Assembly (NCBI GenBank): GCA_012932865.1
Contig: SAXG01000076.1
Span: 124,001-188,000 of the forward strand
Direction: 5' to 3'
DNA: 64,000 bases
Source: Amylostereum areolatum
Taxonomy: Eukaryota; Basidiomycota; Agaricomycetes; Russulales; Stereaceae
Below the pieces are notes generated by a model, which made no database searches, had not been told where the DNA came from, and saw nothing but the letters and a program-made list of their open reading frames with translations. The position numbers and the translations under genes are program-made. Positions 23,901 to 40,500 of the stretch are shown here, piece by piece. Each line of letters begins with the position of its first letter. Positions within the stretch are counted from its first letter, which is position 1.

Positions 23901-24982
23901 TGGGAACCATATAATGGCTATGGGCTCTATTTGCCTGATGAACTTGAGTTTGCGGTTCAACATTTGTGGACTAGAGACATCATACATCCATAACAAAGAC
24001 ATACCAGATCTAAATAACCGCCTCATGCAAGCTTCATCCCCTGGCCTCCGCTATGCTGCACAATACTGGCAGACTCATCTTATGTCACTGGAAAACACAC
24101 ACCTTTTGGAGGCCTTCTGGACATTCCTGCATGACAAATTTCTTTTCTGGCTAGAACTTTTGAGCCTGATGGGGGAAGTAAAGCAAGCTGGGCGTGCATT
24201 ACATGTTGTGTTTAAATTACTTCAGGTATGGTATTTTATTTGGTGAAGTATTAGCATAGTGGCTCAACATTGCACATATAGAGCACTCAAGAGCCTGATC
24301 TGGTCATATTTGTCCAGGATGCTGAGTGGTTTGTCCGCCGGTTTGGAGGACTAATTGCACAATCTGCACCACATATATATATATCTGCATTACCATTTTC
24401 CCCAACCAGGTCTGTAATACAGAGTCACTATATATCCAGGTTTCCACAGGTTGCAACTATCCACAAAAAGAATTTCACTCAGTCAATGTTTCAGAATGTT
24501 CTTCAAGATAATATATCCCGTGCTAGATGTGTTGCATGGTCACCAGATGGGACCCGGATTGTATCTGGCTTTGAGGAGGCAACTATTCGCATCTGGGATG
24601 CAGAGACGGGGAGAGCGATGTGTGATCCTCTAACAGGCCATACTCAAAGAGTGTTATCTGTTGCCTATTCACCAGATGGCACTCACATTGTCTCTTGTTC
24701 TGATGACTTAACCATCCGCTTATGGGATGCAGAGACAGGGAGAGCAGTGGCACATCCCTTACAAGGCCACACTCGTGGAGTTCACTCTGTTGCCTTTTCA
24801 CCAGATGGCACTCATATTGTGTCTGGCTTAGGGGATTCAACCATTTGCATATGGAATGTAGAGACAGGGAGCATAGTGGGTGATCCTCTGACTGGGGGTC
24901 ATACTGCTCTAATTTCTTCTGTTGCCTATTCTCCAGATGGCACTCACATTGTCTCTGGCTCTTGGGATATGACCCTTCTCAT
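20996..24982 (+). pseudogene. NLR-type receptor, 5' part (C2-like, NACHT, WD40), disrupted
   Basis: Fungal NLRs are cytosolic sensors linked to non-self recognition. Introns (21016-21077, 21146-21205, 21360-21414, 21546-21602, 22022-22077, 22129-22181, 22411-22465, 22643-22702, 24226-24281) join ten exons in frame. An N-terminal C2-like region (VYCSINVGGIVQSTECVDAR, SVFKVELFIRRHRRADE) is followed by a helical linker. NACHT follows at about 22840-23330, with Walker A GGAGMGKSAIA, Walker B VLLVIDALDES and sensor VVTSRPE. WD40 repeats begin at about 24519. In the fourth repeat, after GSWDMTLL, the frame enters an LTR and stops at 25073, so the present product would be 1,187 residues with a 29-residue LTR-encoded tail. 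The remainder lies at 35307-37020; without the insertion the gene is 1,704 codons. Confidence 0.85.
24978..24982. repeat. Target-site duplication, left copy (CTCAT)
   Basis: The five bases CTCAT sit directly before the 5' LTR and recur directly after the 3' LTR. Five bp is usual for Ty3/gypsy integrases. Confidence 0.93.
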
Positions 24983-25528
24983 TGTTACAACTCGTTCAAG
25001 GTACTTCATTTCGGTCGCCTTATTAGGAAGGACGTCGCTAAACGACGAGTTACGACTGTGCCCCAGCTCGTAACCGTCCCGACGACATAGCCACGACCGC
25101 GCCACAGCTCGTCGGCATCTCGACAACACAGCTCCGACAGTGCCACAGTTCGTCGACATGTCGACAACACAGCTACGACTGTGCCACAGTCGCGTCCCCG
25201 TAGATACTTGATACGATCGTTGCCTTATGTACATTTATTTACTCGACCTCCTTTCATATAAAAGGAGGCTCAACGAACGAGCTATTCCTCAGCTCGTTCT
25301 CTTTGTAAATACAGGACTGTTCTAATAAGAACCTCCTCTTAAGCATACTAAAGAGAATCCAAACTAAGTTAATAAGCTCGCCTAAGTCTTCCGTGAAGAC
25401 TTACTGCTTCGCTTATTGACCTTTACCTTCGTATAAACCGAGACGTCTGGATCACCTGATCCCACCTCTCACGCATAAGAGTACTGTAGCCTGAGCCGCT
25501 TGTCACGTGATAAGGACCGTCCTTAACA
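24983..25528 (+). repeat. 5' LTR
   Basis: 546 bp with TG...CA ends. It contains a TATA box (25257-25265) placing the RNA start near 25290, and several CACAGCTCG/CGACGA-type short repeats in U3 (25060-25200). It matches the copy at 34761-35306 with no difference seen. Confidence 0.96.
25257..25265 (+). promoter_or_regulatory. LTR TATA box
   Basis: TATAAAAGG in the 5' LTR, repeated in the 3' LTR. Transcription would start about 28-34 nt downstream, at or near AGCTCGTTCT (25291-25300). Confidence 0.7.
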
Positions 25529-25530
25529 CT

Positions 25531-25540
25531 AGAACGAGCT
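25531..25540 (+). other. Probable self-priming primer-binding site
   Basis: Two bases after the LTR comes AGAACGAGCT. It is the exact reverse complement of AGCTCGTTCT at 25291-25300, where the RNA 5' end is predicted. Tf1/sushi chromoviruses prime minus-strand DNA by folding the RNA 5' end onto such a site. No tRNA-type TGG motif sits next to the LTR; a TGGCGCAGAGCG at 25569-25580 is about 40 nt away. Confidence 0.6.
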
Positions 25541-25554
25541 CTCCTCTACACTAG

Positions 25555-26331
25555 CTCACCCTACAGTTTGGCGCAGAGCGTCAAACGAAAACACCCACCA
25601 CGGAGCCAGCGGAACAACCCGCTGAAGAAAGACCATCAGACTTCGAAGTCCCTTATATCCGATCAAACTATAAAGAAGAGCTTCCCAACGGAAACGAAGA
25701 CCATCACTGGACATTTGATCCCACTTATCTCCTCACTTACTACGACGGAATCCTCACTGCAAAGAAAAACAAAGGGACATACGAATATCAGTGGAACCCA
25801 CCCATATACAGATACAACCTTCCCCCAGCCGCAGAGTACTACAAAGATAGATCAAAAAGAGAAAAAGAAGACGGAACCTACGACAATTCACATTGGAAGC
25901 TCTCAGATTATTCAAGACCTCATATCGGGCCCCTCTCATCAGAAGAACTCTGGAAACACCCGGACGCACAGAAAGTCGAAGAGAAACCTTACACCGGGAA
26001 CATTAAGGACTACTGGGAATTTGATCCCGATACCGACACAGCCGATACGACAACCGAACCACAGAACCCTCGAACCGAACTCCAGCATCCTCAAGAACCC
26101 GCAACAGCCGCACCACCTCCAGAAGAAACCGCGCCAGAACCTGAGAGAACTATATCAAGCCCCCAAATTAAGTCCGATCCCGGAGGAAGTCGAGAAGGCA
26201 GCCCATCGAGCGCAGCAGAAACGGAAGAACATACAGAGAACCCAACAAGATCCCCATCACCTGACGACATCTTCGGAACCACAGAAGGAAGAAAAGGAAA
26301 TCTATTCGGAAAACCCGAAAACATCGCATCA
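25555..26331 (+). other. ATG-less open reading frame continuous with gag
   Basis: The gag frame stays open for 259 codons upstream of the first ATG, from the stop at 25552-25554. Its translation looks like a real protein rich in Tyr, Trp, Asp and Pro (YIRSNYKEELPNGNEDHHWT, TYEYQWNPPIYRYNLPPAAE, NIKDYWEFDPDTDTAD). No ATG occurs in any plus frame from about 25230 to 26331. Either a non-AUG codon starts a long Gag, or an mRNA splices here: CTAG...CCCTACAG before 25567 resembles an intron end. Confidence 0.6.
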
Positions 26332-27651
26332 ATGGGAGACACCGCCACCTCGATACCCAACCCCGCCACCGCACTTGGCAATGTCCCCCCTGGAGAGACT
26401 AATGTACCGCGCCAGACGCCTGCAACTCCAACACCAGCCGATCCCGCAAAACCGAGACATGAGACTCGATTCTCCCTAGGACTTGGCACGACCGACCCAA
26501 TAGGATGGAGAACGCTAACGCCACCATCACCAACATTCTCCAACCAATCAATAGATAACAAAAAGGGAAAAGAAGTCAGAGACTACGTCTTCGGAAGAGG
26601 AGCAACCGCGGATCTTCCGAAAGAATCGAAGCACCCACCAGGGAATTCCCCACCAGGAGGAACAGGCACAATCGGATCAAAACCCGATGATAAGGACAAA
26701 GGATTCAAACTAAACGCACTGGGAGTATACGACGGAAGAGATCGAGCGAAAGCAGCAAAGTTCATAGAACAATGCGTACTTCGCTTCATAGCCTTTCCCA
26801 ACGCGTATGCAGCCAACATGCGTAAGATAACCTTTGTACTCTCGCATCTCACTGATGGACCAGCCCTCCACTGGGCGTCCCTCTTAATAAGTAAGATCGA
26901 TAAAATACGAGATCGTGGTCTAGATCCAGAAGTATACCTCCCATGGACGGCATTCCGCGACGCCTTCTTAGAAACCTTCGGAGAAATAGACCCAGGAAGA
27001 GACGCTAGATTCAATATACAGCGCCTAGAACAAGGGACTATGGAAACCAAAGATTATATTACAATCTTCAGGGACTACGCCATGGAAGCAGGCTACGATC
27101 ATAAAGCACTGATCGACCAATTCAAGAGAGGACTGCGCAATGATATCGTGGTCGAGATCCTCAAAAGAGACCACATCTCGAACGATATTGATGAATGGTA
27201 CGAACTCGCATTACGCATTGACAATAACTGGAGAGAAGCGCAAGCGTTCCAACGACATTACACGAGACCAATGAACCCGACGAGTGATCTCACACTCCTA
27301 TACAAGAAACCACAGACATATATTCCATTCAGAAAAGGAAATGGGAATAAAGGAAACGCGACCACCGCCAGAGCGGCACAAACAGGGAACAACGGCCGAA
27401 ACTTCAGACGCCTTACCCCGCAAGAACGTACCGAACTCCAGAAGTCAGGATCATGCTTCTATTGCCGGAAGCCAGGACATATCTCCAGGAACTGCCCAGA
27501 GAAACGTACCCAAACAACGATCAATGCACGAACGGCGAATCTAACAGAAGAAGAATCCCCGATTGATCAGATCACCAAGCTTGTGAATAAGATGGACAGT
27601 GAAACGTTCGCACGCACTGCCAACATGTTCAAAGACAATCAGGGTTTTTGA
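26332..27651 (+). CDS. gag: Gag polyprotein of the retrotransposon
   Basis: From the first ATG (26332) to TGA (27649-27651), 439 residues. The N-terminal 100 residues are Pro/Thr-rich. A Retrotrans_gag capsid region spans about 26720-27270 (AKAAKFIEQCVLRFIAFPNA, LTDGPALHWASLLI, WTAFRDAFLETFG). One CCHC zinc knuckle (CFYCRKPGHISRNC) lies near 27453-27494. Gag forms the virus-like particle and packages element RNA in the cytoplasm. The frame is open for a further 259 codons upstream, so the protein may be longer. The end overlaps a -1 frameshift signal that joins it to pol. Confidence 0.88.
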   Translation: MGDTATSIPNPATALGNVPPGETNVPRQTPATPTPADPAKPRHETRFSLGLGTTDPIGWRTLTPPSPTFSNQSIDNKKGKEVRDYVFGRGATADLPKESKHPPGNSPPGGTGTIGSKPDDKDKGFKLNALGVYDGRDRAKAAKFIEQCVLRFIAFPNAYAANMRKITFVLSHLTDGPALHWASLLISKIDKIRDRGLDPEVYLPWTAFRDAFLETFGEIDPGRDARFNIQRLEQGTMETKDYITIFRDYAMEAGYDHKALIDQFKRGLRNDIVVEILKRDHISNDIDEWYELALRIDNNWREAQAFQRHYTRPMNPTSDLTLLYKKPQTYIPFRKGNGNKGNATTARAAQTGNNGRNFRRLTPQERTELQKSGSCFYCRKPGHISRNCPEKRTQTTINARTANLTEEESPIDQITKLVNKMDSETFARTANMFKDNQGF

Positions 27652-27682
27652 ATCGTCCTTCAACCGCGGCTGTTGAAAGGAC
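27642..27682 (+). promoter_or_regulatory. Programmed -1 frameshift signal, gag to pol
   Basis: Slippery heptamer G GGT TTT (27642-27648) in the gag frame is followed at once by the gag stop TGA. After a 6-nt spacer there is a stem-loop: arm GTCCTTCAAC (27655-27664), 7-nt loop, arm GTTGAAAGGAC (27672-27682), 10 pairs with one bulged A. A -1 slip enters the pol frame (GGG TTT TTG AAT). Pol has no ATG before its 15th codon. Confidence 0.82.
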
Positions 27683-30600
27683 ACAGACAATGAACTTTTC
27701 AAATCAATCTCCTGTGCAGGACACAAGAGATGACGTAAATAGAACAGTGTATATAAGGTCATACCAAGATGGAGCAACGCACGCTCCATCAATTCATATA
27801 CCTGTTACGTTTCATGAAAAGTTCCGTAAAGCCGCCGCAAAGGCACTGCTAGATAGTGGAGCAAGCAGCACCCTGATCCATCCAGATTTCGTACGAAAAC
27901 ACAAGATGAATCTGATCCAATTAAAGAAGCCAATACCGATATACAACGTTGATGGATCTAGGAACACTCTAGGAGAGATCAAGCAGAAAGTGTACCTTCC
28001 AATGACGATGGAAGGAACCAACGGAGAAATTCACCGCGAAAACTTAGGATTGTTCGTCACAGCCCTGGGAGGAGACGAAGTAATCTTAGGAACCCCTTGG
28101 CTCAAGAAACACAATCCTCATATTGATTGGAGAAAGAGACAGATTACACTACAGACATGTCCAGGTACGTGCGTCACTACCAGCAGAACAATGATCATCC
28201 AAGGAAAAGACGAACACTCTCTACAATCATTCGAAGAACAGAAGATCAACCATCACGCAACAGTAGAAGAACAAGAAGATCCCGAATCCAACTCCGATCT
28301 CGCCGATATCAGGATAGTCAGAACGTTCCATGGAAAAACGGACGTAGAAACAATGCCGATTGCAAAAGAAGCAAACGAACCCGGTATCTGGATAACAGCA
28401 AGAGCAACCAAGGCACAAGAACTCGCAGAAAGAGCGGCCATAGGAGAGAAGAAGAAGACACTCGATGAGATGATTCCATCTAGTTACAAACAGTATCAGA
28501 AGGTATTCGAAAAGAAAGCGTCGGAACGCTTCCCAATCAGCAGACCTTGGGATCACGCGATAGACCTGACTGAAGGATGGAAACCTCGAAATTGCAAAGT
28601 ATACCCAATGACGGTACCAGAACGAAAGGAACTGGACACATTCATAGATGAACATTTACGAAAAGGGTACATCCGAGAATCAAAATCAGAGATATTGTCA
28701 CCCTTCTTCTTTATCAAGAAGAAAGATGGATCTCTCCGACCAGTACAGGACTATCGCTATCTTAACTCGATAACGGTCAAAAACGAATACCCGATACCGC
28801 TCATTTCAGATCTCATCGACAAATTAAAAGGCGCTAAAATCTTCTCAAAGCTCGATCTCCGATGGGGATACAACAATGTTCGGATCAAGGAAGGAGATCA
28901 ATGGAAAGCGGCATTCAAAACAAACAGAGGCCTTTTCGAACCAATGGTGATGTTCTTCGGACTAACCAACTCACCCGCAACATTCCAAGCAATGATGAAC
29001 GCACTATTCAAAGAATTAATAGACACCGGAAAAGTAGTGGTCTATATGGATGACATACTGATATTTACAGAAACACTCGACGAACATAGAAGACTTATGA
29101 AAGAAGCCCTCCAACTTCTAGAACGGAACGATCTATTCCTCAAACCGGAGAAGTGCTTCTTCGAACAACCATCGATCGAGTACCTAGGCGTGATAATCAC
29201 GCACAACAAGGTACAGATGGATCCGGTCAAAGTCCAAGGGCTAGCCGAATGGCCCACACCGAGGAAGGTAAAAGAAGTCCAATCATTCCTCGGATTTGGA
29301 AATTTCTATCGACGCTTCATCAAAGACTATTCCAAGATCGCCAGACCCCTATTCCAGCTCACAAAGAAAGACCACGAATGGAACTGGACGGCCGAATGTG
29401 AACGTACTTTCGAAAGACTGAAACAAGAATTCACATCGTCCCCAATCTTGATCATGCCCGATGAAAACAAACCATTCCGCATAGAGAGTGACGCCTCCGA
29501 CTTTGCGTACGGAGCCATCCTATCGCAACCAGACGAGATCGAAAGATGGCATCCGGTCGCGTACCTATCCAAATCACTATCTCCCGCGGAACAAAATTAC
29601 GAGATATACGACAAAGAACTCTTAGGAGTAGTGAAAGCCTTAGAACACTGGCGACACTATCTAGAAGGAGCGAACCACAAAGTCGAAATCTGGACAGATC
29701 ACAAAAATCTAGAATATTTCACAACAGCTCAGAAACTCAATCGACGACAAGCACGATGGAGCTTGTATCTGTCCCGTTTCGACTACACCCTGGTACACAA
29801 ACCAGGAAGTACAAACAAAGCAGACGGACTCTCTAGAAGACCAGATCATAAGGAAGATATTCCAGACAACGACGACCGCATCCTACTTCACCCTTCGGTT
29901 TTCAGGGCTAGAGCCACCGGAAGAGGAACAGTCGAAGCAGTCGGAGACAAAGAACTTCTCAAAGAACTAAGAAACTTCTCTCACCTAGATGATGAAGTTT
30001 GGACGGCGTTAGATATGATCAAAAGATCGGGACCACGCACCCTCGCAAAAGGAATCGAAGACTGGAACTTCGAGAACGATCTGATCATCAGAAAAGGAAA
30101 AATCTATGTACCACAGAATCTCGAACTCAGGCGCATGATCCTAAAATCGCATCATGATCTAGAAACGATTGGACATCCAGGCGAAATGAAAACTCTAGAA
30201 CTAGTACAAAGAAACTTTTGGTGGCCAAAGATGATTTCATTCGTAAAAAATTATGTTCAAGGATGTCCCGTATGCCAGTCAACGAAGAATGTCACGCATC
30301 CGGCGAAACACCCATTACAACCTACGGAAATACCAGAACGACCATGGGAAACAATCACATCAGATTTCATTACAGATCTTCCGATCTCCAACGGATTCGA
30401 TTCAATCAACGTAGTCGTCGATAGGTTCACCAAAACCGCAGTATTTACACCGTGCCTAAAGACGATCAACGCAGAAGAAACAGCCGACCTTCTGATCGAC
30501 AACGTTTACAGACGATTTGGACTATGGAAAAGAATGATATCGGACCGAGGTCCTCAATTCGCATCCAAAGTATTCCAATCCATCTGCGAAAGCCTCGGAG

Positions 30601-31535
30601 TTATTTCATCGCTCAGTACAGCGTATCATCCCCAAACAGATGGCGAAACAGAAAGAGTGAATCAAGAGTTAGAACAATATCTTCGAGCATTCTGCAACGG
30701 AGATCAAACGAATTGGGCGAAACTCCTACCAAAAGCAGAATTTGCACACAATATAAGACAACATTCAGCTACGAAAGCTTCCCCATTCGAACTCCTACAC
30801 GGGTATCAACCGGTTTTCAATCCGGCAATACCAACCGATCCGCGAATACCAACGGCCGAAGAAAGAATAAAAAACTTTAAGGACGCATGGGACAACGCGG
30901 AAGCAAGTCTGGAAATAGCTGCTAAATTAATGAAAATGCAGCATGATCAAACATTCACGCTAAGAGATCAACTCAAACAAGGCGATCAAGTATGGTTAGA
31001 CGGAAAAAACCTTAACACGGTATACCCGAAAACCAAGCTAGCACCGAAACGATTCGGCCCATTCAAAATCGAAAAAGTTATAGGACCGGTAACCTACCGC
31101 CTAGAACTACCGACGAAGTGGAAAATACATCCAGTATTCCATGCAGCATTGTTGATTCCATTCAAAGAAACAGAACAATACGGCAAAGCTTACGAAAGAC
31201 CACCTCCAGAACTAGTAAACGATGAAGAACTCTACGAACTAGAAACAATAGTAGCCTCAAAATTAGACAAACGATATTCAGAACCGCTACATTACTTCGT
31301 GAAATGGAAAGGATACCCAGACTCTGGTAACACATGGGAACCAGCATCTAATCTAGAAGGATCAAAAGATGCGATCGCAGAGTTCCATCGGAATAACCCC
31401 AAGGCACCGAAGTTGCCACCACAGCCAATCAAAGATACCAACACAGAAACCACTGATCGCGACGAAACCGACGCAACGCAGCGAGAACGAAGACCAACAA
31501 GACGAAAGAAACGCAAGACGAGAATGAGACATTAG
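27642..31535 (+). CDS. pol: Pol polyprotein: protease, RT, RNase H, integrase, chromodomain
   Basis: About 1,297 codons in the -1 frame of gag, without internal stops. Domains in order: aspartic protease with ALLDSGASS (27852-27860 is the D-S-G triad); reverse transcriptase with FFIKKKDGSLRPVQDYRYLN and YMDD at 29043-29054; RNase H (FRIESDASDFAYGAILSQ, EIYDKELLGVVKALEHWRHY); integrase with the HHCC finger (HHDLETIGH...CPVCQ, about 30150-30290), catalytic Asp in TSDFITD and SDRGPQF and Glu in DGETERVNQE; the GPY/F-type module (RFGPFKIEKVIGPVTYRLEL); and a C-terminal chromodomain (YFVKWKGYPDSGNTWEPASN, about 31230-31410). In chromoviruses the chromodomain steers integration toward marked chromatin. 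This copy, however, landed in a gene. It ends in a basic RRKKRKTRMRH tail. Confidence 0.96.
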   Translation, partial: GFLNRPSTAAVERTQTMNFSNQSPVQDTRDDVNRTVYIRSYQDGATHAPSIHIPVTFHEKFRKAAAKALLDSGASSTLIHPDFVRKHKMNLIQLKKPIPIYNVDGSRNTLGEIKQKVYLPMTMEGTNGEIHRENLGLFVTALGGDEVILGTPWLKKHNPHIDWRKRQITLQTCPGTCVTTSRTMIIQGKDEHSLQSFEEQKINHHATVEEQEDPESNSDLADIRIVRTFHGKTDVETMPIAKEANEPGIWITARATKAQELAERAAIGEKKKTLDEMIPSSYKQYQKVFEKKASERFPISRPWDHAIDLTEGWKPRNCKVYPMTVPERKELDTFIDEHLRKGYIRESKSEILSPFFFIKKKDGSLRPVQDYRYLNSITVKNEYPIPLISDLIDKLKGAKIFSKLDLRWGYNNVRIKEGDQWKAAFKTNRGLFEPMVMFFGLTNSPATFQAMMNALFKELIDTGKVVVYMDDILIFTETLDEHRRLMKEALQLLERNDLFLKPEKCFFEQPSIEYLGVIITHNKVQMDPVKVQGLAEWPTPRKVKEVQSFLGFGNFYRRFIKDYSKIARPLFQLTKKDHEWNWTAECERTFERLKQEFTSSPILIMPDENKPFRIESDASDFAYGAILSQPDEIERWHPVAYLSKSLSPAEQNYEIYDKELLGVVKALEHWRHYLEGANHKVEIWTDHKNLEYFTTAQKLNRRQARWSLYLSRFDYTLVHKPGSTNKADGLSRRPDHKEDIPDNDDRILLHPSVFRARATGRGTVEAVGDKELLKELRNFSHLDDEVWTALDMIKRSGPRTLAKGIEDWNFENDLIIRKGKIYVPQNLELRRMILKSHHDLETIGHPGEMKTLELVQRNFWWPKMISFVKNYVQGCPVCQSTKNVTHPAKHPLQPTEIPERPWETITSDFITDLPISNGFDSINVVVDRFTKTAVFTPCLKTINAEETADLLIDNVYRRFGLWKRMISDRGPQFASKVFQSICESLGVISSLSTAYHPQTDGETERVNQELEQYLRAFCNGDQTNWAKLLPKAEFAHNIRQHSATKASPFELLHGYQPVFNPAIPTDPRIPTAEERIKNFKDAWDNAEASLEIAAKLMKMQHDQTFTLRDQLKQGDQVWLDGKNLNTVYPKTKLAPKRFGPFKIEKVIGPVTYRLELPTKWKIHPVFHAALLIPFKETEQYGKAYERPPPELVNDEELYELETIVASKLDKRYSEPLHYFVKWKGYPDSGNTWEPASNLEGSKDAIAEFHRNNPKAPKLPPQPIKDTNTETTDRDETDATQRERRPTRRKKRKTRMRH

Positions 31536-31617
31536 TGAGACTCAACAGCATTCAGGCGAATGCACTGCCAACAAAGGGGGGATAAAAACCCTACGGGTTC
31601 AACAAGACAGATCACCA

Positions 31618-31872
31618 ATGTCCACCACCCCGAACGCAACCAACATCTCCTCTACCAATCAAACCGTCTCACCCAACAATGTCGACCGCATCCGTCTCGT
31701 CTGCAACAAAGCGCACCACTCTCAACAGGAACGCGCCCTCTGCGGAGACTGCTTCATCGCTCGATCGGCAGCAGTCTTCGCAATTAAGTCAGTACCTCCT
31801 CCGTCTAGGTCAGGACCAGACGGAAGAACAGGGGGTCAGCTGATTGGAAGCACACAGAAGGACCCTAACTGA
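31618..31872 (+). CDS. Retrotransposon ORF after pol (84 aa, Cys/His-rich)
   Basis: Unknown. ATG at 31618 in good context (CACCAATGTCC). A Thr/Asn-rich start is followed by a short Cys/His cluster (VCNKAHHSQQERALCGDCF) that could bind zinc. It may be a first exon: a GTACCT donor at 31792 and an acceptor at 31892 (CTAAC branch, CTCACAG) would fuse it in frame to the 31893-33623 frame, which lacks its own ATG. This splicing is a proposal from sequence only. Confidence 0.4.
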   Translation: MSTTPNATNISSTNQTVSPNNVDRIRLVCNKAHHSQQERALCGDCFIARSAAVFAIKSVPPPSRSGPDGRTGGQLIGSTQKDPN

Positions 31873-33463
31873 AGCACCCGGATTCCTCACAGGTGCCAAC
31901 GCAATCCCCGTCGTCCGGAACGACGAAGGTCCCAACACCCGATTCCCCGATACTCGAGAATCAAATAGCCCACATGATAGCCGGAGTAGCGATCGAGCAG
32001 GCCAGGCAGCGGATCGACGACCTCAGGAGGGAGTTGGCCGACGTCCAGGGCATCCTGGAAGACCACAACAAGATGCTCGACGAAGAACTCCATCAGCTGG
32101 ACTTGAGGTACATGACGCTCTCGACCGAAATGGAGGAACGAGAGGTCAAACTCCTTCGACGATTCAGGAAGCTAACGCAGCGGCTTTACTCAATGTCGCA
32201 GAACTCCGGAGATTCCTTACCGAAGTCGGACTCAGAGTTAACTGGCTTAACTGGGAAAGACACACCTTCCGCGCCGCCTACGAAGGAGAAATCCTCCGAA
32301 GACGAATGGAAACTACTGGAGTTCCCCATATGTCTTCGAAAGAAGGCCCCGACATCGACCTTATCTTCCATGGACATCACATCTCCCCGGGCTACACTGT
32401 TCGACCCGATCCCATCGCATCCGCCCTCACCAGACCCCCGTTCCTTCCTAACGCCCCTCCACGACCCGTCACCGCCCCTACGCCACCAGGATCCTTACCC
32501 ATCCCCGGCATCACCCAGCTTAACCCCGTCCAGCCTCCCGTCGTTAGAAACGGATTACCCGAAGAGCAGTTCAGACAGCCCCTGCCAAGAGAGCTATCGG
32601 GACAGTCCCTGGTCCTTCCAGAGCCCGGACAATCGACCGGACGACCGGCCAGCAATCCGCGACCGGTACCTAGGACACCTCCTCAGCTGCCCGCCGTGCA
32701 TAGAACGCCAACTCCATTCCCACTATCTGCTAGCGACACTCCCATGCCTTGGCACGGAAACCACGCCCCTTATCCCTCATTCCCACGCCCGCACCCCGAC
32801 TACGCTCGAAATCCCGTCGCCCAGGATCCCCGAGTCACCGCACAGAGACGTAAACATGATTCTACCGAGCCCAACGGAAGACCAGTCAAGCGGATCAGAG
32901 AGTTCAGACTCCCCGATGCATCGGGTGAGGAAGAACTTCAAAGAACTCAAGAAGATAGTCGATCGGATGATGGAGGAGCGCGCTCGCAGGAGACAGGAAC
33001 TCAACCTAACGGACGAGTCGGACAGTTCAGCGGACGAATCGGACAGCTCGACGGACAGATCGGAGAAGGACGACAAGACGAAGGAAGCAGCCGAGAATCC
33101 CTCGGACCCATGGAGCAACGAACCGACCACGTGGACGCAAGAAGAGTGGGACGCGATTCCCTCGAAGCCGCGGAAACGCTGCTGGAAATGCGGCAAGCGA
33201 GGCCATCTCCGCCGAGACTGCCCCCGTCGCAAGAACGCTCCCCCTCACTTCCCCCAATCTCGGTCCTACCATCCCCTTCGACCACAGACTCTTCCCCCTC
33301 ACCCTCGCCCGAACCGTCCGGATATCAGTTACGGTCCAGGAACACTGATGTCCCACCCCCGCCTCCGACGTACCGACGCTACCGCCCGCGCCCACAGGCA
33401 ACTCCTGGGATTCCTCACACGACGCGAGAGCCTGACGCACGAAGCCGCCCAGCACGCCACTGA
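31844..33463 (+). CDS. Retrotransposon ORF overlapping the CCHC ORF in another frame
   Basis: Open for about 540 codons in a different frame across nearly the same DNA. Part looks folded (LLNVAELRRFLTEVGLRVNW, HTFRAAYEGEILRRRMETTG); the rest is Pro-rich, with a basic patch (NGRPVKRIREFRLPD) and a C-terminal GYQLRSRNT motif. It has no clear ATG at its start. Alternatives are true dual coding, compensating frameshifts between one ancestral ORF and two frames, or chance openness caused by C-rich composition. Confidence 0.35.
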   Translation: MEAHRRTLTEAPGFLTGANAIPVVRNDEGPNTRFPDTRESNSPHDSRSSDRAGQAADRRPQEGVGRRPGHPGRPQQDARRRTPSAGLEVHDALDRNGGTRGQTPSTIQEANAAALLNVAELRRFLTEVGLRVNWLNWERHTFRAAYEGEILRRRMETTGVPHMSSKEGPDIDLIFHGHHISPGYTVRPDPIASALTRPPFLPNAPPRPVTAPTPPGSLPIPGITQLNPVQPPVVRNGLPEEQFRQPLPRELSGQSLVLPEPGQSTGRPASNPRPVPRTPPQLPAVHRTPTPFPLSASDTPMPWHGNHAPYPSFPRPHPDYARNPVAQDPRVTAQRRKHDSTEPNGRPVKRIREFRLPDASGEEELQRTQEDSRSDDGGARSQETGTQPNGRVGQFSGRIGQLDGQIGEGRQDEGSSRESLGPMEQRTDHVDARRVGRDSLEAAETLLEMRQARPSPPRLPPSQERSPSLPPISVLPSPSTTDSSPSPSPEPSGYQLRSRNTDVPPPPPTYRRYRPRPQATPGIPHTTREPDARSRPARH

Positions 33464-33623
33464 ACAATGGTTGTACTGGGAGGACGCCATGCTCCGCACT
33501 CAGCGAGAACCCCCATCGCGCTTCAATCACTCTTGGCGCGTCGACGATCTCTTCTGGAAGATAGAAGATTGGGACTTGCAGGAAGCGGAGGAGTCGAAGG
33601 ATCACTGGCCGGAGCCCTGGTAA
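31869..33623 (+). CDS. Retrotransposon ORF with coiled coil and second CCHC knuckle
   Basis: The frame is open from 31869 to 33623 and has no ATG at its start (GTG at 31893), so it probably needs the splice noted for the 84-aa ORF or a non-AUG start. An N-terminal coiled coil (HMIAGVAIEQARQRIDDLRR onward, about 75 residues) is followed by a long Ser/Pro-rich region. Next come a charged helix (NFKELKKIVDRMMEERARRR), an acidic Ser/Asp repeat and a canonical zinc knuckle, CWKCGKRGHLRRDC, at about 33179-33221. The C-terminus is Trp-rich (DHWPEPW). Coiled coil, Pro-rich stretch and knuckle resemble a second Gag-like, nucleic-acid-binding protein. Most of it overlaps another open frame. Confidence 0.55.
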   Translation: MKHPDSSQVPTQSPSSGTTKVPTPDSPILENQIAHMIAGVAIEQARQRIDDLRRELADVQGILEDHNKMLDEELHQLDLRYMTLSTEMEEREVKLLRRFRKLTQRLYSMSQNSGDSLPKSDSELTGLTGKDTPSAPPTKEKSSEDEWKLLEFPICLRKKAPTSTLSSMDITSPRATLFDPIPSHPPSPDPRSFLTPLHDPSPPLRHQDPYPSPASPSLTPSSLPSLETDYPKSSSDSPCQESYRDSPWSFQSPDNRPDDRPAIRDRYLGHLLSCPPCIERQLHSHYLLATLPCLGTETTPLIPHSHARTPTTLEIPSPRIPESPHRDVNMILPSPTEDQSSGSESSDSPMHRVRKNFKELKKIVDRMMEERARRRQELNLTDESDSSADESDSSTDRSEKDDKTKEAAENPSDPWSNEPTTWTQEEWDAIPSKPRKRCWKCGKRGHLRRDCPRRKNAPPHFPQSRSYHPLRPQTLPPHPRPNRPDISYGPGTLMSHPRLRRTDATARAHRQLLGFLTRRESLTHEAAQHATEQWLYWEDAMLRTQREPPSRFNHSWRVDDLFWKIEDWDLQEAEESKDHWPEPW

Positions 33624-34071
33624 GCGCACGGACGAACTTTCATTCATCATCATGCACTCGGACTTTCTTACTTCACCCATCATACGCACTCGGACTATCT
33701 CTCGCATCATCATTTACGTCTTCATCCCGTTCCTATCATCCCGCCCTTACGATTTCTCCTTACGATACTCCTCGGACTGATCACGGACTGCGCCCTCACT
33801 CGTACGCATATTTTCCTCGGACTTCTCTACTATACCGGTTCCTATCGCTATGAGGAAGGCGAAACGCTTAGCATCTTTCCCAGCGACGCACTGGATGCAT
33901 CGCTTACTTACAACTCATGTCTAATTATGTACGAGATTCCCGCTTACGATTGACGGCAATGATTACATCATTGCTCCTCCACATCGCAAGCATAAAAGGA
34001 AAGTCACAAAGACGATAACATCCTCAGACATCGTCTAAACAAACTCACTCGCACCGCCCAAACCAACAAAA

Positions 34072-34455
34072 ATGTCTTCTACTCTTACCTCCTCGTCGCG
34101 CAACCTCTCCACCACCGACCACACTCCTCCTACCACTCCTCCTCCTTCGCCCGTCCTCTCGCGCACTCCCACGCCCGACCCACAGGACGAAGAACTCCTT
34201 CGTCATCTCAAACGAGTCACGGAACTCCTAAACCGTCCGGACGTCGCTCGCGCCATGAAGAGGCCGAGAAGCTTAGACGAAGAAGCTATGCAGGAGTCGA
34301 AGGGAAGATCCGGCATCAAGGGACTCTTCCGAAAGCGCGGGCCTCGGTTCAAGAGCCCGGATCACGCGACGACGGCGAGGATAGGGCATCGGTTAGGGGC
34401 TACTACGATAAACGGAGAGGACCTAAAGGTAGTAGAAGCGTTGTTGAAACGATAG
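34072..34455 (+). CDS. Retrotransposon ORF, basic 127-aa protein
   Basis: Unknown. The ATG is in excellent context (CAAAAATGTC) after an A/C-rich leader. A Ser/Thr/Pro-rich N-terminus (about 40 residues) precedes a Lys/Arg-rich C-terminal half (EELLRHLKRVTELLNRP, GIKGLFRKRGPRFKSP). A TATA-like ATAAAAGG at about 33992-33999 lies about 75 bp upstream, so it may have its own promoter. It could be a small nucleic-acid-binding accessory protein. Confidence 0.5.
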   Translation: MSSTLTSSSRNLSTTDHTPPTTPPPSPVLSRTPTPDPQDEELLRHLKRVTELLNRPDVARAMKRPRSLDEEAMQESKGRSGIKGLFRKRGPRFKSPDHATTARIGHRLGATTINGEDLKVVEALLKR

Positions 34456-34527
34456 AATAGAATTCTATCGTTAGGGTCCGGGCAAGGATATAAAGAGTGA
34501 ACATCAGAAAACGACAAACCCAGAAGC

Positions 34528-34851
34528 ATGATGCAATCAACACAATCACCCGACCTATTGATCTTCAATACGCCCACTCCTCGCTGGCTCATCGCCGTCA
34601 TCAGCATCATCGTAGGACTTACGATCCTCACCTTCCTCGCATCAACCATATTCCTTCTCCAATGGCGAAGAGCGAGCGACCGACAACACGTTCAAGACAT
34701 CCCGCTAGAACCACTTAGGTTCAGGAATCTACGAGACGTAGATTCTAGAGAGGGGGATAGTGTTACAACTCGTTCAAGGTACTTCATTTCGGTCGCCTTA
34801 TTAGGAAGGACGTCGCTAAACGACGAGTTACGACTGTGCCCCAGCTCGTAA
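34528..34851 (+). CDS. Retrotransposon ORF, single-pass membrane protein ending in 3' LTR
   Basis: 107 residues. A short N-terminus is followed by one strong hydrophobic helix (WLIAVISIIVGLTILTFLAS, continuing TIFLLQW) and a basic cytosolic-type flank (RRASDRQH). The last 30 or so codons lie in the 3' LTR, with a stop at 34849-34851. One membrane span near the 3' end recalls the place of env in retroviruses, but there is no signal peptide, large ectodomain or similarity that I can see, so an env role is speculative. Confidence 0.45.
   Translation: MMQSTQSPDLLIFNTPTPRWLIAVISIIVGLTILTFLASTIFLLQWRRASDRQHVQDIPLEPLRFRNLRDVDSREGDSVTTRSRYFISVALLGRTSLNDELRLCPSS
34747..34757 (+). other. Polypurine tract
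   Basis: AGAGAGGGGGA ends three bases before the 3' LTR, where plus-strand DNA synthesis of LTR elements is primed. Confidence 0.82.
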
Positions 34852-35306
34852 CCGTCCCGACGACATAGCCACGACCGCGCCACAGCTCGTCGGCATCTCG
34901 ACAACACAGCTCCGACAGTGCCACAGTTCGTCGACATGTCGACAACACAGCTACGACTGTGCCACAGTCGCGTCCCCGTAGATACTTGATACGATCGTTG
35001 CCTTATGTACATTTATTTACTCGACCTCCTTTCATATAAAAGGAGGCTCAACGAACGAGCTATTCCTCAGCTCGTTCTCTTTGTAAATACAGGACTGTTC
35101 TAATAAGAACCTCCTCTTAAGCATACTAAAGAGAATCCAAACTAAGTTAATAAGCTCGCCTAAGTCTTCCGTGAAGACTTACTGCTTCGCTTATTGACCT
35201 TTACCTTCGTATAAACCGAGACGTCTGGATCACCTGATCCCACCTCTCACGCATAAGAGTACTGTAGCCTGAGCCGCTTGTCACGTGATAAGGACCGTCC
35301 TTAACA
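34761..35306 (+). repeat. 3' LTR
   Basis: 546 bp, matching the 5' LTR base for base as far as I can read. Its promoter could drive the downstream NLR fragment. Confidence 0.96.
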
Positions 35307-35311
35307 CTCAT
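35307..35311. repeat. Target-site duplication, right copy (CTCAT)
   Basis: Second copy of the 5-bp duplication. Reading straight from the left flank through a single copy restores the WD40 frame (CTT CTC ATA TGG GAC). Confidence 0.93.
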
Positions 35312-37020
35312 ATGGGACACAACATCAGGGAAGGTGGTGGGGGATCCTCTAGAAGGTCATACTGATAGAGTTAATTGTGCTGCCTATTCACCAAATGGTA
35401 CTCAAATTGTCTCTGGTTCTAATGACTCAACCATATGTATCTGGGATGCAAAGACAAGGGAAGTGATAGGTGGCCCTCTAAAAGGTCATACTCAGGCAGT
35501 GTATTCAGTTGCCTATTCACCAGATGGCACTCATATTGTCTCTGGCTCTGATGACTCAACCATCCGTGTATGGGATGTAGAGACAGGGAGAGAAGACTGT
35601 CATCCTTTGAGGGGCCACACTGCATGGGTTTCCTCTGTGGCTTATTCACCAGATGGCACTCATATTGTCTCTGGCTCTTATGACTCAACAATCTACATCT
35701 GGACTGCAGATACAGGGAGATTAGCCAACCATTCACTGCAAGGCCAACCCTCACAGATATCCTCTGTTGCCTATGCACAAGATGGCAAGTGCATTGTTTC
35801 TGGCTCCTCTGATGGAGCAGTCCAAATCTGGGATGCAAAGACTGGAAGCACAGTTGGTGAACCTCTGAGAGGTCACACTTACTCAGTTTGCTTTATTGCC
35901 TATTCACCAGATGGCAAGCACATCATCTCTGGCTGTGATGAAGTAATCTATATCTGGGATGTAGAGACAAGAAAAAAAGTGGGACAATATTCACTGCAAA
36001 TGAATGGATCCTCAGAGTATTCTAGTATTACCTGTGTTGCCTACTCATCAGATGGAAAGCACATTATATGTGGTTCTAATGAGGAATCAGTCTATATACT
36101 GGATGCAGAGACTGGGAGGATGGTGGTTGATTCTCTAAAAGTACAGAATCCCAGTTCAACCCCTTGTTCTGTTGCATGCTCACCAGATGGCAAGTATATT
36201 GTCTCTGGCTTATATGACACAACAATCCGCATCTGGGATGCAGAAATGGGAATACTAGTAGGGGATCCTCTAAAAGGTCATACTGATGCAGTCTATGCTG
36301 TGGCCTATTCACCAGATGGCAAACACATTATCTCTGGCTCAGATGACACAACAGTCTGCATCTGGGATGCAGAGACAGGGAGAGCAGTAGGTGATCCTCT
36401 GAAAGGTCATGCTGCTGGAATCTATTCTATTGCGTATTCCCCATCTGGTGAATACATTGTCTCTGCCTCTTCTGACTCAACAATCTGTATATGGGATGCA
36501 AGGACAGGAAAAGCTGTTTGCAATTCACTGCAAGGTCATGCCTCAGTGATCACATCAGTTGCCTACTCCCCAGATGGAACCCACATTGTCTCTAGCTCAT
36601 TGGACACAACAATCCGAGTCTGGGATGTGAAAATGAAAGCAGCAGACTTGCATGTACTTCAATATTCAAGTATGTTCAAGAATCATCCATATCAATCTCA
36701 GATGATGATACTCATTCTTTTATTGTATATCTATAGATACTTACCCCTTGGCCAATTTCCATAGCCAGAGCACCACTTGCTCAAACAGTGGAATATCCCT
36801 CCCCTTCAAAATCAAAGATGGATGGATCACTGACAGCGAATCTCATCTCCTCATCTGGGTTCCAGATGAATATAGAAATGCTCTGTGGTGGCCTGGAACA
36901 GAGAAGATTATCGGACGCACACCAATTGAAATTGACTTCAAGCATGCAAAGCATGGAGTGGAGTGGACCAAGTGCATGGATAGTGTGGAGTCTGAATCAG
37001 ATTTATATGCTCCTGCTTGA
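35307..37020 (+). pseudogene. NLR-type receptor, 3' part (WD40 repeats and C-terminal cap)
   Basis: This is the continuation of the gene beginning at 20996, displaced by the retrotransposon. It carries the second half of WD40 repeat 4 and repeats 5-14, nearly uniform units of about 43 residues (core VAYSPDGTHIVSGS, DSTIRVWDVETG). With the 3.5 repeats on the other side this makes 14 blades, two seven-bladed propellers. Repeats 8-11 are more divergent. An intron at 36670-36736 leads to a conserved-looking C-terminal cap (DGWITDSESHLLIWVPDEYR, HGVEWTKCMDS) ending at 37020. The fragment has no start codon of its own close to the LTR, so it is probably silent unless read from the LTR promoter. Confidence 0.85.
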
Positions 37021-37494: not shown

Positions 37495-40326
37495 TCACGC
37501 CGCGCCGGCAGCGGCGACCTTCGCCTTGATCGTGTCGACGACGGCGGGGTCGGCGAGCGTGCTGAGGTCTCCGAGCTGGTCGCCCTCGCCCGCGACGATC
37601 TTGCGCATGATGCGGCGCATGATCTACGCACCGAGACGCGCGTCAGCAAGTCCAACACCGATCGCACCAAGACAAGATTTTAAAAAAGGGGCGGCATGGG
37701 AAGAGGTAAGGGTAAGGGGGAGACGAAGGAGCGGGACCGCGCACCTTCCCCGAGCGCGTCTTAGGCAGGTCCCCGACGACGTAGATCTTCTTCGGCGCCG
37801 CGAACGGGCCGATCACCTTGCGCACTTGGAGGGTGAGCTCCTTGACGAGGCCGGACTCGTCCGACGGGTCGAACTTGAACTCCCTGAGTAGTAGCGCGTC
37901 AGAAGGATGTGGATCCCGAAGATACGAAGGTGACGCACGGCTTGAGCGTGACGAACGCGTACACGGCTTGGCCCGTCAGCTCGTCCGCGCATCCGATCAC
38001 TGAAACCATCATAGCATCCGTCAGCAAGGTTTCGCGAGGCCTTTACTGGCACCCAAAGCCAAAAAGCCAAAATCCAAAGCGACGAGAACCCACCTGCGGT
38101 CTCCGCGACGCCCGAATGCATGATCAGCGCCGACTCGATCTCCGCCGTGGACAGACGATGTCCGGACACGTTGATGACGTCTATTCGGGATAACGCGATC
38201 ACGGGTCAGCACGCGGGCAACAACGACGAGGAGGAAGAGGACAGTCGGTTGAAACGGGGAGGAGGGGTGTGCGCTGGCGCGGGCCGCACAAAGCCGGGAG
38301 GGGATGACATGACAGCCAGCATGGAAGGACGAAACCGACAGCTCGTACGGACGAAGCAAGAGGACGACAGCGCGGAATGGAACTCGGCAAAGTCCGACAG
38401 CAAGAACGAACGAACGAAAGAAAGACAGGAAGAACGCACCGTCGACCCGGCCCTTGATCCAGATATACCCGTGCTCGTCGCGCGCGGCGCCGTCGCCGGT
38501 GTAGAACACGCCAGGGTACGGGCGCATGTACGTGTCGAGGTACCGCGCGTGGTCCTCGTACACCGTGCGCGCGATCGACGGCCACGGCGACTTGAGCACC
38601 AGCACGCCCTCGACGTTGTTGCCCTTCAGCTCCTGTAACGCCCCCGGTTCAGCATCGCGGCGCTCATCAACGCAGTGCAGCGAGGGGAACGCACCACGCC
38701 CGTCGTCGGGTCCAAAATCGCGGGCTCGATCCCGAAGAACGGCACCGTCGCCGCCCCCGGCTTGGTCTCGATCGCGCCCGGGAACGGCGTGACGACGATG
38801 CTGCCCGTCTCCGTCTGCCAGAACGTGTCCACGATCGCGGCCTCGAACCGCCCGACGTGCTCGTTGAACCAGTTCCACGCCTCGGGGTTGATCGGCTCCC
38901 CCACGGAGCCCAGCACGCGCAGGGAGGAGAGGTCGTGCGGCTCGGCGTGGTGCGCGCCGAGACGGCGGAGGAGGCGGATGGCGGTGGGCGCGGTGTAGAA
39001 CTGCGTGAGCGCGTGCTTTTCGACGGTTTGCCAGTAGCGCGCGGGGGAGGGGTAGACGGGGGTCGATTCGAAGACGACGGTGGAGACGCCGTTGGCGAGC
39101 GGGCCGTAGACGATGTAACTGGTGAGAGGGGGTTAGTGAATGGGTGATGAAAGAAGGGAGAGGAGGGGACGAACGTGTGGCCCGTGATCCAGCCGACGTC
39201 CGCCATGCACGCGAACTTGTCGTCCGGGTGGACGTCGAAGACGTACTTGACCGTGAGCGCGGCGCCGAGAAGATACCCCGCTGTCGTGTGCACGACGCCC
39301 TTCGGCTTTCCCGTCGAGCCTGACGTCTGCAATGTCCGACGTCCATCAGCCTCGGACGCCACCAACACAAACGCGGAGATGGACGCACGTAGAGGATGAA
39401 GAGCGGGTCCTCGCTCGCCATGATCTCCGGCGGGCAGTAATTCGGCACCTTCGCCGTCTCCTCGTGCCACCACTTATCCCTGCCCTCCGTCCACGCCACC
39501 TCGTTGCCCGTCCTTCGCAGCACGAGCACATGCTCGACGCGCGGACACTGGCGCAGGGCCGCGTCCACGATCGCCTTGGTCGCGATCGTCTTCCCCCCGC
39601 GCTTGCCCTCGTCCGCGGTGAGCAGCACGCGCGATTTGCAGTCGACGACGCGATCGCGGAGGGCCTCGGCGGAGAAGCCGGCGAAGACGACGGAGTGGAT
39701 GGCGCCGATGCGGGCGCAGGCGAGGAAGGCGGCGACGGCGTGCCAGGTCATGGGGAGATAGACGGAGACGGTGTCGCCCTTCTTGACGCCCATCGACTTG
39801 AGCACGTTCGCGAGCGAGCAGACCTCGCGCAGGAGCTCGGCGTAGGAGATGTTGCGGCCCTCGTGCGGCTCGTCCGCTTCGTAGATGATCGCCGTCTGTA
39901 CTGACGCGTGTCAGAGAAAAGAAGGGGGTGAGATGGGGGAAGGGACGCGCCTTATCGGGATGTTTGAACGCCCATCGGTCGACGCAGTTGTAGGAGGCGT
40001 TGAGCCCGCCCTCGGGGAACCATACGATGTCGCCCGTCTCGAAGGCGCCGGCGCGCACGGTGTGGAACGGCCTGTCCCAGCTGAGCGTCTCTCTCGCCAT
40101 CTGTTCCCCGCCCCGCCGCCGCCGATGAGCTCGCGGCTCCGCTGCGCGCGCACAACTTGGATGCACGCACCTTGGCCCACCATTTGTCGGATTCGTGGCC
40201 GACGGTCTCGGCGTGCGCGAGTCGGTAGGCGTCGATGTGGGGGCCGATGTGGGGAACCTTGGGCCCGTTCTTGAGACGGGGCGCGACGGGATGGATGGGC
40301 ACTGCAGGCGGGGCGTCGTCGGACAT
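37495..40326 (-). CDS. ACS1: Acetyl-CoA synthetase
   Basis: It converts acetate, ATP and CoA to acetyl-CoA in the cytosol and nucleus, feeding lipid synthesis and histone acetylation. The ATG is at 40326 ([15 protein letters not shown]) and the stop at 37495. In order: N-terminal domain ([39 protein letters not shown]), [20 protein letters not shown], the ATP-binding loop [43 protein letters not shown], the acetate-pocket WQTETGS, and a C-terminal domain ([14 protein letters not shown]) with the PKTRSGK...IMRR lysine that is acetylated in this family. Seven or more short introns break the gene. A typical family length of about 660-680 residues fits. The flanking F-box and NLR genes are unrelated. 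Confidence 0.95.
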
Positions 40327-40410
40327 CGTGGTTCGTTGGAATGCGATGCGACGATGGATACGTTGGGGAACGGGGATGGGGAGAAAGTGGAGGGGAATGG
40401 GGGAGCGCGG

Positions 40411-40500
40411 GGAGGCGTGTAATTATACGCAAGCGGGGGCGCAGGCCGGCTCCCGCTTCCCGGATGGGGCAAGGGGGCCATGGGCGCGCGCCAATCAGCG
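40411..40500 (-). promoter_or_regulatory. ACS promoter elements
   Basis: Upstream of the minus-strand ATG are an AT-rich TATAATTA-like element (40417-40428), a TCC-N8-GGA site (40451-40464) like those bound by FacB/Cat8 zinc-cluster factors in ascomycetes, and a CCAAT box (40491-40495). Use of these sites here is inferred. Confidence 0.4.

What the first reader, a model, noticed from the sequence alone, without database searches (positions are those of the whole stretch)
31536..34760. Chromovirus with about 3.2 kb of extra coding capacity after pol, including a second CCHC protein
Typical Ty3/gypsy chromoviruses end shortly after the chromodomain. Here at least five open frames follow: an 84-aa Cys/His ORF, a frame of about 585 codons with a coiled coil and a canonical CCHC knuckle, an overlapping frame of about 540 codons, a basic 127-aa ORF and a membrane ORF. 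The CCHC frame repeats a Gag-like layout (coiled coil, Pro-rich, knuckle). Base composition is richer in C than gag-pol, which suggests a separate origin such as a captured gene. I know of no described element with this set.
Basis: partly seen in the sequence, partly recalled or inferred. Interest (0 to 1): 0.85.

Follow-up and report, generated by a model that had tools for sequence, protein, structure and literature searches.

The report
Retrotransposon with overlapping accessory genes
A mobile element found in many copies in a fungal genome carries, after its usual genes, an extra gene block in which one stretch of DNA appears to encode two different proteins at once, a kind of economy usually seen in viruses.

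Summary
The window carries a 10.3-kb Ty3/gypsy chromovirus (24983-35306; identical 546-bp LTRs, CTCAT duplication). The 3.2 kb after pol is no private passenger: pattern counts are 166 pol ends, 167 first exons and 170 ends of the CCHC frame genome-wide. Among copies, codon and stop statistics show selection on four products. Two overlap for about 1.7 kb in different frames: A (595 aa) and B (628 aa, CCHC). Each stays open beyond what the other explains (0 of 2000 synonymous permutations; stops 6 against 20.3 expected in A, 1 against 18.9 in B). A 58-nt GT-AG intron joins the 84-aa ORF to A, and a second conserved ATG to B; two copies of different subfamilies lack exactly this intron, as expected of reverse-transcribed spliced RNA. 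A 127-aa ORF and a membrane ORF running into the 3' LTR are also under selection; the 128-aa ORF at 33467 is not. No homologue of A or B was found; pol gave 6067 in the same database. RNA and protein evidence is missing and functions are inferred. Extra ORFs in LTR elements are known; my paper searches listed no spliced, overprinted pair.

The parts
24983..25528 (+). 5' LTR, 546 bp, TGTTAC...TTAACA; TATA-like box near 25256
   Evidence: Identical to the 3' LTR over its whole length; 5-bp duplication CTCAT at 24978-24982 and 35307-35311
25533..25542 (+). possible self-priming site: 10 nt complementary to 25291-25300 in the LTR
   Evidence: Exact complement found; Tf1-type self-priming is recalled, so only a lead
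26332..27651 (+). gag (439 aa): Retrotrans_gag, CCHC
   Evidence: Pfam
27648..31535 (+). pol (1295 aa): protease, RT, RNase H, integrase, chromodomain
   Evidence: Pfam
31536..31617 (+). conserved non-coding stretch with PPT-like tract AAAGGGGGGATAAAAACCC (about 31574-31592)
   Evidence: 6 of 82 sites variable (minor count 2 or more) against 19 of 79 third positions at the end of pol; 141 pattern matches genome-wide at up to 2 mismatches, control 0
31618..31834 (+). exon 1: ATG 31618 starts frame A (C-x3-HH-x7-C-x2-C), ATG 31679 starts frame B
   Evidence: Both ATGs in 37 of 37 rows that cover them; the five Cys/His codons in 39 of 39 covering rows; open to the splice site in both frames
31835..31892 (+). 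58-nt intron, donor GTCAGC here, GTAAGC in 37 of the 38 rows that hold a donor; branch-like CTAAC, acceptor CACAG in 39 of 40 rows
   Evidence: Exactly absent from copy L033 and L048; genome-wide 2 spliced, 169 unspliced; donor and acceptor counts
31893..33463 (+). frame A, rest of the 595-aa protein
   Evidence: Stops depleted and synonymous changes enriched after allowing for selection on B; ratio 0.26 internal, 0.24 terminal in 32136-32495
31893..33623 (+). frame B, rest of the 628-aa protein: likely coiled coil (by eye), Pro/Ser-rich and acidic middle, CCHC at 33180-33221, conserved C-terminus
   Evidence: Ratio 0.14 internal, 0.20 terminal in 33464-33623, the part not shared with A; CCHC residues in 39 of 39 covering rows; Pfam
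33624..34071 (+). non-coding spacer, TATA-like motif near 33994
   Evidence: No codon pattern; 40 distinct indel events listed, 33 not a multiple of three, two of the 40 being ends of cut rows; motif variants
34072..34455 (+). 127-aa basic ORF
   Evidence: Ratio 0.28 internal, 0.45 terminal; pairwise 0.17-0.27
34531..34851 (+). small membrane ORF with one hydrophobic span (by eye), crossing the tract before the 3' LTR into the LTR
   Evidence: Ratio 0.43 internal, 0.30 terminal up to 34755; pairwise 0.29-0.35; stop lies 19-208 bases inside the LTR in 33 of 36 copies measured
34747..34760 (+). polypurine tract before the 3' LTR, core GGGGGATA shared with the tract after pol
   Evidence: Sequence; 35 of 40 rows within one mismatch over 34738-34761
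34761..35306 (+). 3' LTR

Best explanation
The element is a chromovirus with a virus-like accessory gene block after pol. A separate RNA covering the 3' third is spliced at a 58-nt intron and carries two start codons 61 nt apart. Ribosomes starting at the first ATG (C at -3) make protein A; those that pass it and start at the second (A or G at -3) make protein B from the same nucleotides in another frame (leaky scanning). B, with a zinc knuckle and a probable coiled coil, most likely binds element RNA and oligomerises as a Gag helper in assembly, packaging or transport. A carries an N-terminal Cys/His cluster and one conserved domain and probably regulates expression or host contacts. The 127-aa ORF and the membrane ORF are further accessory genes, each with a TATA-like motif upstream; the membrane ORF sits where nef sits in lentiviruses (recalled). 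Shown: the region goes with pol throughout the family; A, B, the 127-aa and the membrane ORF are under protein-level selection; the intron has been lost precisely in two copies. Inferred: the promoter, the leaky scanning and every function.
For: Carried by the family: 166 pol ends, 167 exon 1, 170 B ends, reversed controls 0. Selection (internal branches, ratio to expectation): 0.14 in the B-only part, 0.28 for the 127-aa ORF, 0.43 for the membrane ORF; 0.22 for the end of pol as positive control; 0.88-1.29 in the spacer as negative control. Dual coding (all branches): given selection in B, A has 6 stops against 20.3 expected (P 2e-4) and 241 synonymous changes against 188; given selection in A, B has 1 stop against 18.9 (P 1e-7) and 284 synonymous against 204; the third frame has 26 stops against 22.4 or 25.9. 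Internal branches alone: 0 against 3.4 in A and 0 against 3.5 in B (P 0.03 each). Constraint alternates: 32136-32495 protects A (0.26, B 1.56), 32496-32975 protects B (0.51, A 1.52). Permuted synonymous codons never gave so long an open run, 0 of 2000 for either frame. 35 of 40 rows have no stop in A, 39 of 40 none in B, 0 of 40 none in the third frame (projection on window columns). Splicing: two copies of different subfamilies lack exactly GT...AG. -3 contexts: C in 37 of 37, then A or G in 37 of 37. A subgroup 75-92% alike in the parts of the overlap keeps the 58-nt intron and both ATGs, and its deletions there (27, 18 or 15, and 6 bases) keep frame.
Against: No RNA or protein data. The stop counts skip insertions. 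Of 15 distinct indel events in the overlap, 3 are multiples of three, 11 are single bases and 1 is the cut end of L047; ten of the 11 single-base ones occur in one copy each, one (33384) in 6 of 39. So several copies are decayed or carry assembly errors. A is weakly constrained outside 32136-32495: pairwise 0.66-0.86 over the overlap, against 0.46-0.49 for B and 0.93-1.24 for the third frame, and 1.2-1.5 in 32976-33215. None of the three diverged copies has A intact: read from their own letters A is open for 207, 567 and 448 codons, B for 134, 612 and 613. Exon 1 shows weak constraint (0.74 for A, 1.09 for B, internal). The window's splice donor is GTCAGC, so this copy may splice poorly. The TATA-like motifs vary. 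L019 lacks a match to the last two genes. Copies are related, so the P values are rough.
Confidence: 0.6

Rival explanations
1. The intron is the frame switch. Unspliced RNA read from the second ATG (31679) runs through the intron into frame A (A'); spliced RNA read from the same ATG gives B. One start codon and one alternative intron give two proteins that share 52 N-terminal residues.
For: The frame from ATG 31679 is open through the intron in 38 of 41 covering copies, while each of the other two frames has at least one stop there in all 41; 7 of 13 variable intron sites are third positions of this frame (2/7/4). In the three diverged copies intron differences also fall mostly there (5 of 6, 6 of 9, 6 of 8). 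28 of 38 copies are open to the end of A by this route (projection on window columns).
Against: Three copies (the window, L036, L039) have TGA at 31841, and L036 and L039 are sisters in the tree, so the family probably spread at least once without this route. The counts are small. It leaves the ATG at 31618 and the five invariant Cys/His codons of that frame without a role.
Confidence: 0.25
2. Only B is a gene; A is open merely because the stretch is C-rich and T-poor.
For: A is weakly constrained in most parts and broken in the three diverged copies; in the 5' leader of the window two frames are also open for about 315 codons.
Against: 0 of 2000 synonymous permutations of B keep A as open (longest 327 codons, observed 574); stop depletion P 2e-4 after allowing for B; in 32136-32495 A is protected and B is not; the intron joins an ATG ORF with five invariant Cys/His codons precisely to A.
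Confidence: 0.1
3. The block is a captured host or viral gene carried as a passenger, or an envelope-like third gene.
For: Different base composition; a membrane ORF is present; additional and env-like ORFs are known in other LTR elements (PMC5408684, abstract and passages).
Against: No relatives found for A, for B beyond its knuckle or for the 127-aa ORF. The three large protein searches went to B, A and pol; the 127-aa and membrane ORFs were not put to that search. No glycoprotein-sized ORF with a membrane span was seen; the block counts match pol and the frames are under selection, hence not a passenger.
Confidence: 0.1

Closest known systems
Fungal Ty3/gypsy chromoviruses (basidiomycete clades such as MarY1, Laccy, Tcn)
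   Same: LTRs, short duplication, gag with CCHC, pol with RT, integrase and chromodomain; Figure 3 legend of Novikova 2010 (PMC2864245; passages and section 5 read) lists 'add. ORF', an additional ORF of unknown function
   Different: That paper says most full-length elements have one or two ORFs; no splicing or overlapping pair is described in the parts I read. Clade not determined here.
Bdelloid rotifer LTR elements with varied ORF3 (PMC5408684; abstract and passages read)
   Same: Extra genes after pol, said to be expressed from spliced messages; small ORFs with TM, and CC types, are mentioned
   Different: Described ORF3 include env-like, GDSL esterase and DEDDy exonuclease; the word 'overlapping' does not occur in the text
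Plant Retand elements with long pol-3'LTR region (PMC11963269; abstract only)
   Same: Region of 2.9-6.6 kb between pol and 3' LTR with conserved extra ORFs
   Different: ORFs are antisense (TRP28 domain); non-chromovirus; often tandem repeats
Viral overprinted accessory genes and lentiviral nef (recalled)
   Same: Two proteins from one stretch in different frames, leaky scanning, a small membrane-associated gene overlapping the 3' LTR
   Different: No sequence relationship shown; analogy only

Membership tests
Ty3/gypsy chromovirus | LTRs with TG...CA ends and short target duplication | tested here: met
   546-bp identical LTRs, CTCAT duplication
Ty3/gypsy chromovirus | gag, and pol in the order protease, RT, RNase H, integrase, chromodomain | tested here: met
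   Pfam hits in that order, chromodomain E 2.6e-14
Ty3/gypsy chromovirus | RT phylogenetic position within a named fungal clade | not tested
   Listed pol relatives are up to 69% identical; named ones include agaricomycetes (Lyophyllum, Dentipellis, Pleurotus) but also an ascomycete, an alga and an amphibian record; no tree built
Env-bearing LTR elements (errantivirus/retrovirus-like) | ORF3 encoding a fusion glycoprotein with signal peptide, ectodomain and anchor | tested here: not met
   The only ORF with an evident membrane span (by eye) is 107 aa, at most 147 codons in other copies, span near its N-terminus; no Pfam env family in any of the eight proteins. Signal peptides were not predicted.
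Overprinted gene pair | Both frames under protein-level selection in the shared stretch | tested here: met
   weak for A outside 32136-32495
Overprinted gene pair | Each frame has its own conserved start | tested here: met
   ATG 31618 and 31679 in 37 of 37 covering rows, given the splice
Overprinted gene pair | Both proteins are made | not testable with these tools
   no RNA, ribosome or peptide data held

The most novel reading that the evidence does not exclude
A cellular LTR retrotransposon has built a virus-style accessory genome: a 1.7-kb stretch encoding two unrelated proteins, governed by one 58-nt intron and two start codons, plus two small genes, one of them crossing into the 3' LTR. 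This would be a long overprinted pair in a retrotransposon, with about 170 natural copies in one genome in which selection on each frame can be measured.
Probability: 0.58. Interest if true: 0.85.

Novelty: new variant of a known kind. Interest (0 to 1): 0.73.

Why it matters
Overprinting, leaky scanning and accessory genes are usually counted as features of infectious viruses. Finding them in a multi-copy fungal chromovirus would show that a retrotransposon without an obvious envelope can evolve the same gene economy, and gives a large set of copies (about 170 in one genome) to study how new genes arise inside old ones. The two intron-less copies also suggest that spliced RNA of the element is reverse transcribed and inserted.

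Tried and rejected
Homologue searches in 5.8 billion proteins with frame B (exon-2 part) and frame A (539-aa unspliced ORF): none at E 1e-3 among the 7996 and 7992 best candidates scored. The pol control gave 6067 of 7979 scored, so fungal retroelements are held, but predicted proteomes often omit or mis-splice such genes and the word filter limits sensitivity. Viral contigs with B, the 127-aa ORF and pol, and prokaryote contigs with pol: no relative. NCBIfam for four proteins: no hit near a cut-off. Solved structures: nothing for A, one chance-level hit for the 127-aa ORF, nucleocapsid knuckles for B; the membrane ORF was not searched there. AlphaFold2 on single sequences of an A segment and the 127-aa ORF: mean pLDDT 45.4 and 60.9, too poor for a fold search.

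Rejected: the ORF at 33467-33853 as a gene (no codon pattern beyond B's stop, frameshifting indels shared by many copies). Rejected: truncated copies as products of subgenomic splicing. L013 and L026 share a junction from late pol to about 31684 without GT-AG logic. L032 joins the leader (to about 26246) to about 31847 inside a short stretch alike at both ends, leaving the branch and acceptor in place, so a template-switch deletion of gag-pol is likelier. Not resolved: whether the gag frame, open without ATG into the leader, is translated there; variable sites in 8 copies plus the window give only a hint.

Paper searches on extra ORFs, overlapping frames, overprinting and leaky scanning in LTR elements listed no description of an overprinted spliced pair after pol, by title and abstract start; most subscription papers are not held.

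Full report
What is there. The element runs from 24983 to 35306. Its 546-bp LTRs are identical, start TGTTAC and end TTAACA, and are flanked by CTCAT on both sides. It splits a host ORF with an NTPase-like start and WD repeats (reading of translations). gag (26332-27651) and pol (27648-31535) have the domains and order of a chromovirus.

Is it part of the element? A 1.5-kb probe gave 40 scored places of 200 candidates, the window included. I fetched the 39 others; each carries at least part of the region. Six of the 39 rows are incomplete in the alignment: L013, L026 and L032 lack the first 384-548 bases, L047 ends near 33105, L019 has no match to the last two genes, and the tail of L014 exists but was cut by my extraction. 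Short patterns over the whole genome give 166 pol ends, 167 exon 1 and 170 B ends, with none in the reversed controls. I did not match these places one by one. The pol-end pattern lies a few hundred bases from exon 1, and a pattern finds only close relatives, so this says little about elements whose pol is much more diverged.

Which frames are genes? Substitutions were placed on a tree of 40 sequences (2437 changes, 1179 internal). The end of pol, the positive control, has a nonsynonymous-to-synonymous ratio of 0.22 of expectation on internal branches. The part of B beyond the end of A has 0.14, the 127-aa ORF 0.28 and the membrane ORF 0.43. The spacer 33624-34071 has 0.88, 1.12 and 1.29 in its three frames. 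Terminal branches agree (0.25, 0.20, 0.45, 0.30; spacer 0.76-1.28). Pairs with a diverged subgroup give 0.06-0.11 for the end of B, 0.17-0.27 for the 127-aa ORF and 0.29-0.35 for the membrane ORF.

Two frames at once. Over 31895-33463 the ratio is 0.62 (B), 0.91 (A) and 1.25 (third frame) on internal branches and 0.64, 0.78 and 1.45 on terminal ones. The constraint alternates along the stretch: on internal branches 31895-32135 (B 0.33, A 1.54) and 32496-32975 (B 0.51, A 1.52) protect B, while 32136-32495 protects A (A 0.26, B 1.56; terminal A 0.24, B 1.44). A test that first allows for selection in the other frame still finds too few stops and too many synonymous changes in each: A 6 stops against 20.3, B 1 against 18.9, third frame 26 against 22.4 or 25.9. 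On internal branches alone the numbers are small: 0 against 3.4 and 0 against 3.5. If synonymous codons of A are permuted, B never stays open over the observed 594 codons (longest 515 in 2000 trials); the reverse gives at most 327 against 574. The window copy has 25 stops in the third frame of the same spliced stretch.

Splicing and starts. Copy L033 lacks exactly 31835-31892, from GT to AG. A degenerate junction pattern finds one more such place, in a copy with the 12-base duplication of exon 1 (sequence), against 169 unspliced places. The donor is GTAAGC in 37 rows and GTCAGC in the window; two rows have none. Removing the intron joins ATG 31618 to frame A (595 aa) and ATG 31679 to frame B (628 aa). 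Both ATGs are present in 37 of 37 covering rows. The first has C at -3, the second A or G. Leaky scanning is the simplest route to both proteins; it is inferred. The intron itself is open in frame A in 38 of 41 copies, with a weak excess of variable third positions, which leaves room for an intron-retained form of A.

Depth. Three copies of a more diverged subgroup are 75-92% identical in the five parts of the overlap. They keep the 58-base intron and both ATGs, and their deletions there are multiples of three. They are not intact: from their own letters A is open for 207, 567 and 448 codons and B for 134, 612 and 613; on window columns they have 3, 1 and 2 stops in A and 1, 0, 0 in B, against 27-31 in the third frame. 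L050 is 99% identical to the window in the last two genes and 75-92% from the end of pol to the end of B, which indicates recombination between subgroups.

Control regions. The 82 bases after pol vary little: 6 of 82 sites, against 6 of 54 in the intron, 19 of 79 third positions in the end of pol and 149 of 448 in the spacer. They hold a tract AAAGGGGGGATAAAAACCC, whose core resembles the tract before the 3' LTR. It may be a second polypurine tract, a promoter or part of an acceptor region; the data do not choose. TATA-like motifs before the 127-aa and membrane ORFs are kept in varied form.

Function. B has one CCHC knuckle, its only clear similarity to Gag and to HIV nucleocapsid structures. 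A stretch that looks like a coiled coil by eye precedes it. RNA binding and multimerisation are the natural guess. Five Cys/His residues of A in exon 1 are invariant in 39 of 39 covering rows and may bind zinc. The membrane ORF has one hydrophobic span by eye and ends inside the 3' LTR in 33 of 36 copies measured. No homologue of A or B was found, with pol as a working control; the 127-aa and membrane ORFs were not put to that large search.

Novelty. Extra ORFs after pol are known in plants and rotifers, and an additional ORF is marked for fungal elements (PMC11963269, abstract; PMC5408684, abstract and passages; PMC2864245, passages and section 5). My searches listed no paper on a spliced, overprinted gene pair in an LTR retrotransposon. 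I file it as a new variant of a known kind.

Noticed in passing
22750-24982 and 35312-36764: The element interrupts a host ORF with a P-loop NTPase-like start and WD repeats (NLR-like by reading, not by a family search); identical LTRs suggest a recent insertion.
   Followed up: partly
25531-26331: The gag frame is open but without ATG far upstream into the leader, and a second frame of about 303 codons overlaps it; 8 other copies show a weak codon-position bias that favours the gag frame. The window has one base more than the other eight.
   Followed up: partly
25291-25300 and 25533-25542: Ten complementary bases between the LTR and the first internal bases, where no TGG-type tRNA primer site is seen: possible self-priming.
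   Followed up: no
31536-31617: Little-varying non-coding 82 bases with a second polypurine-like tract; possibly a central tract or promoter.
   Followed up: partly
L050:1-3481: Mosaic copy: 99% identical to the window in the last two genes, 75-92% alike before them; recombination between subgroups.
   Followed up: partly
L013 and L026, around window 31208-31684: Two copies share a junction that deletes the end of pol and the start of exon 1, so a defective form has probably been copied.
   Followed up: partly
L032:1-2671: Copy without gag and pol: leader to about window 26246 runs straight into about 31847, joined within a short similar stretch, with the rest of the module kept; a natural gag-pol-less derivative.
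   Followed up: partly
L019:2657-4401: After the B gene the sequence does not match the window's last two genes; a copy with another or missing tail.
   Followed up: no
38021-40481: Minus-strand ORF pieces that read like an acetyl-CoA synthetase gene with introns (translations only).
   Followed up: no
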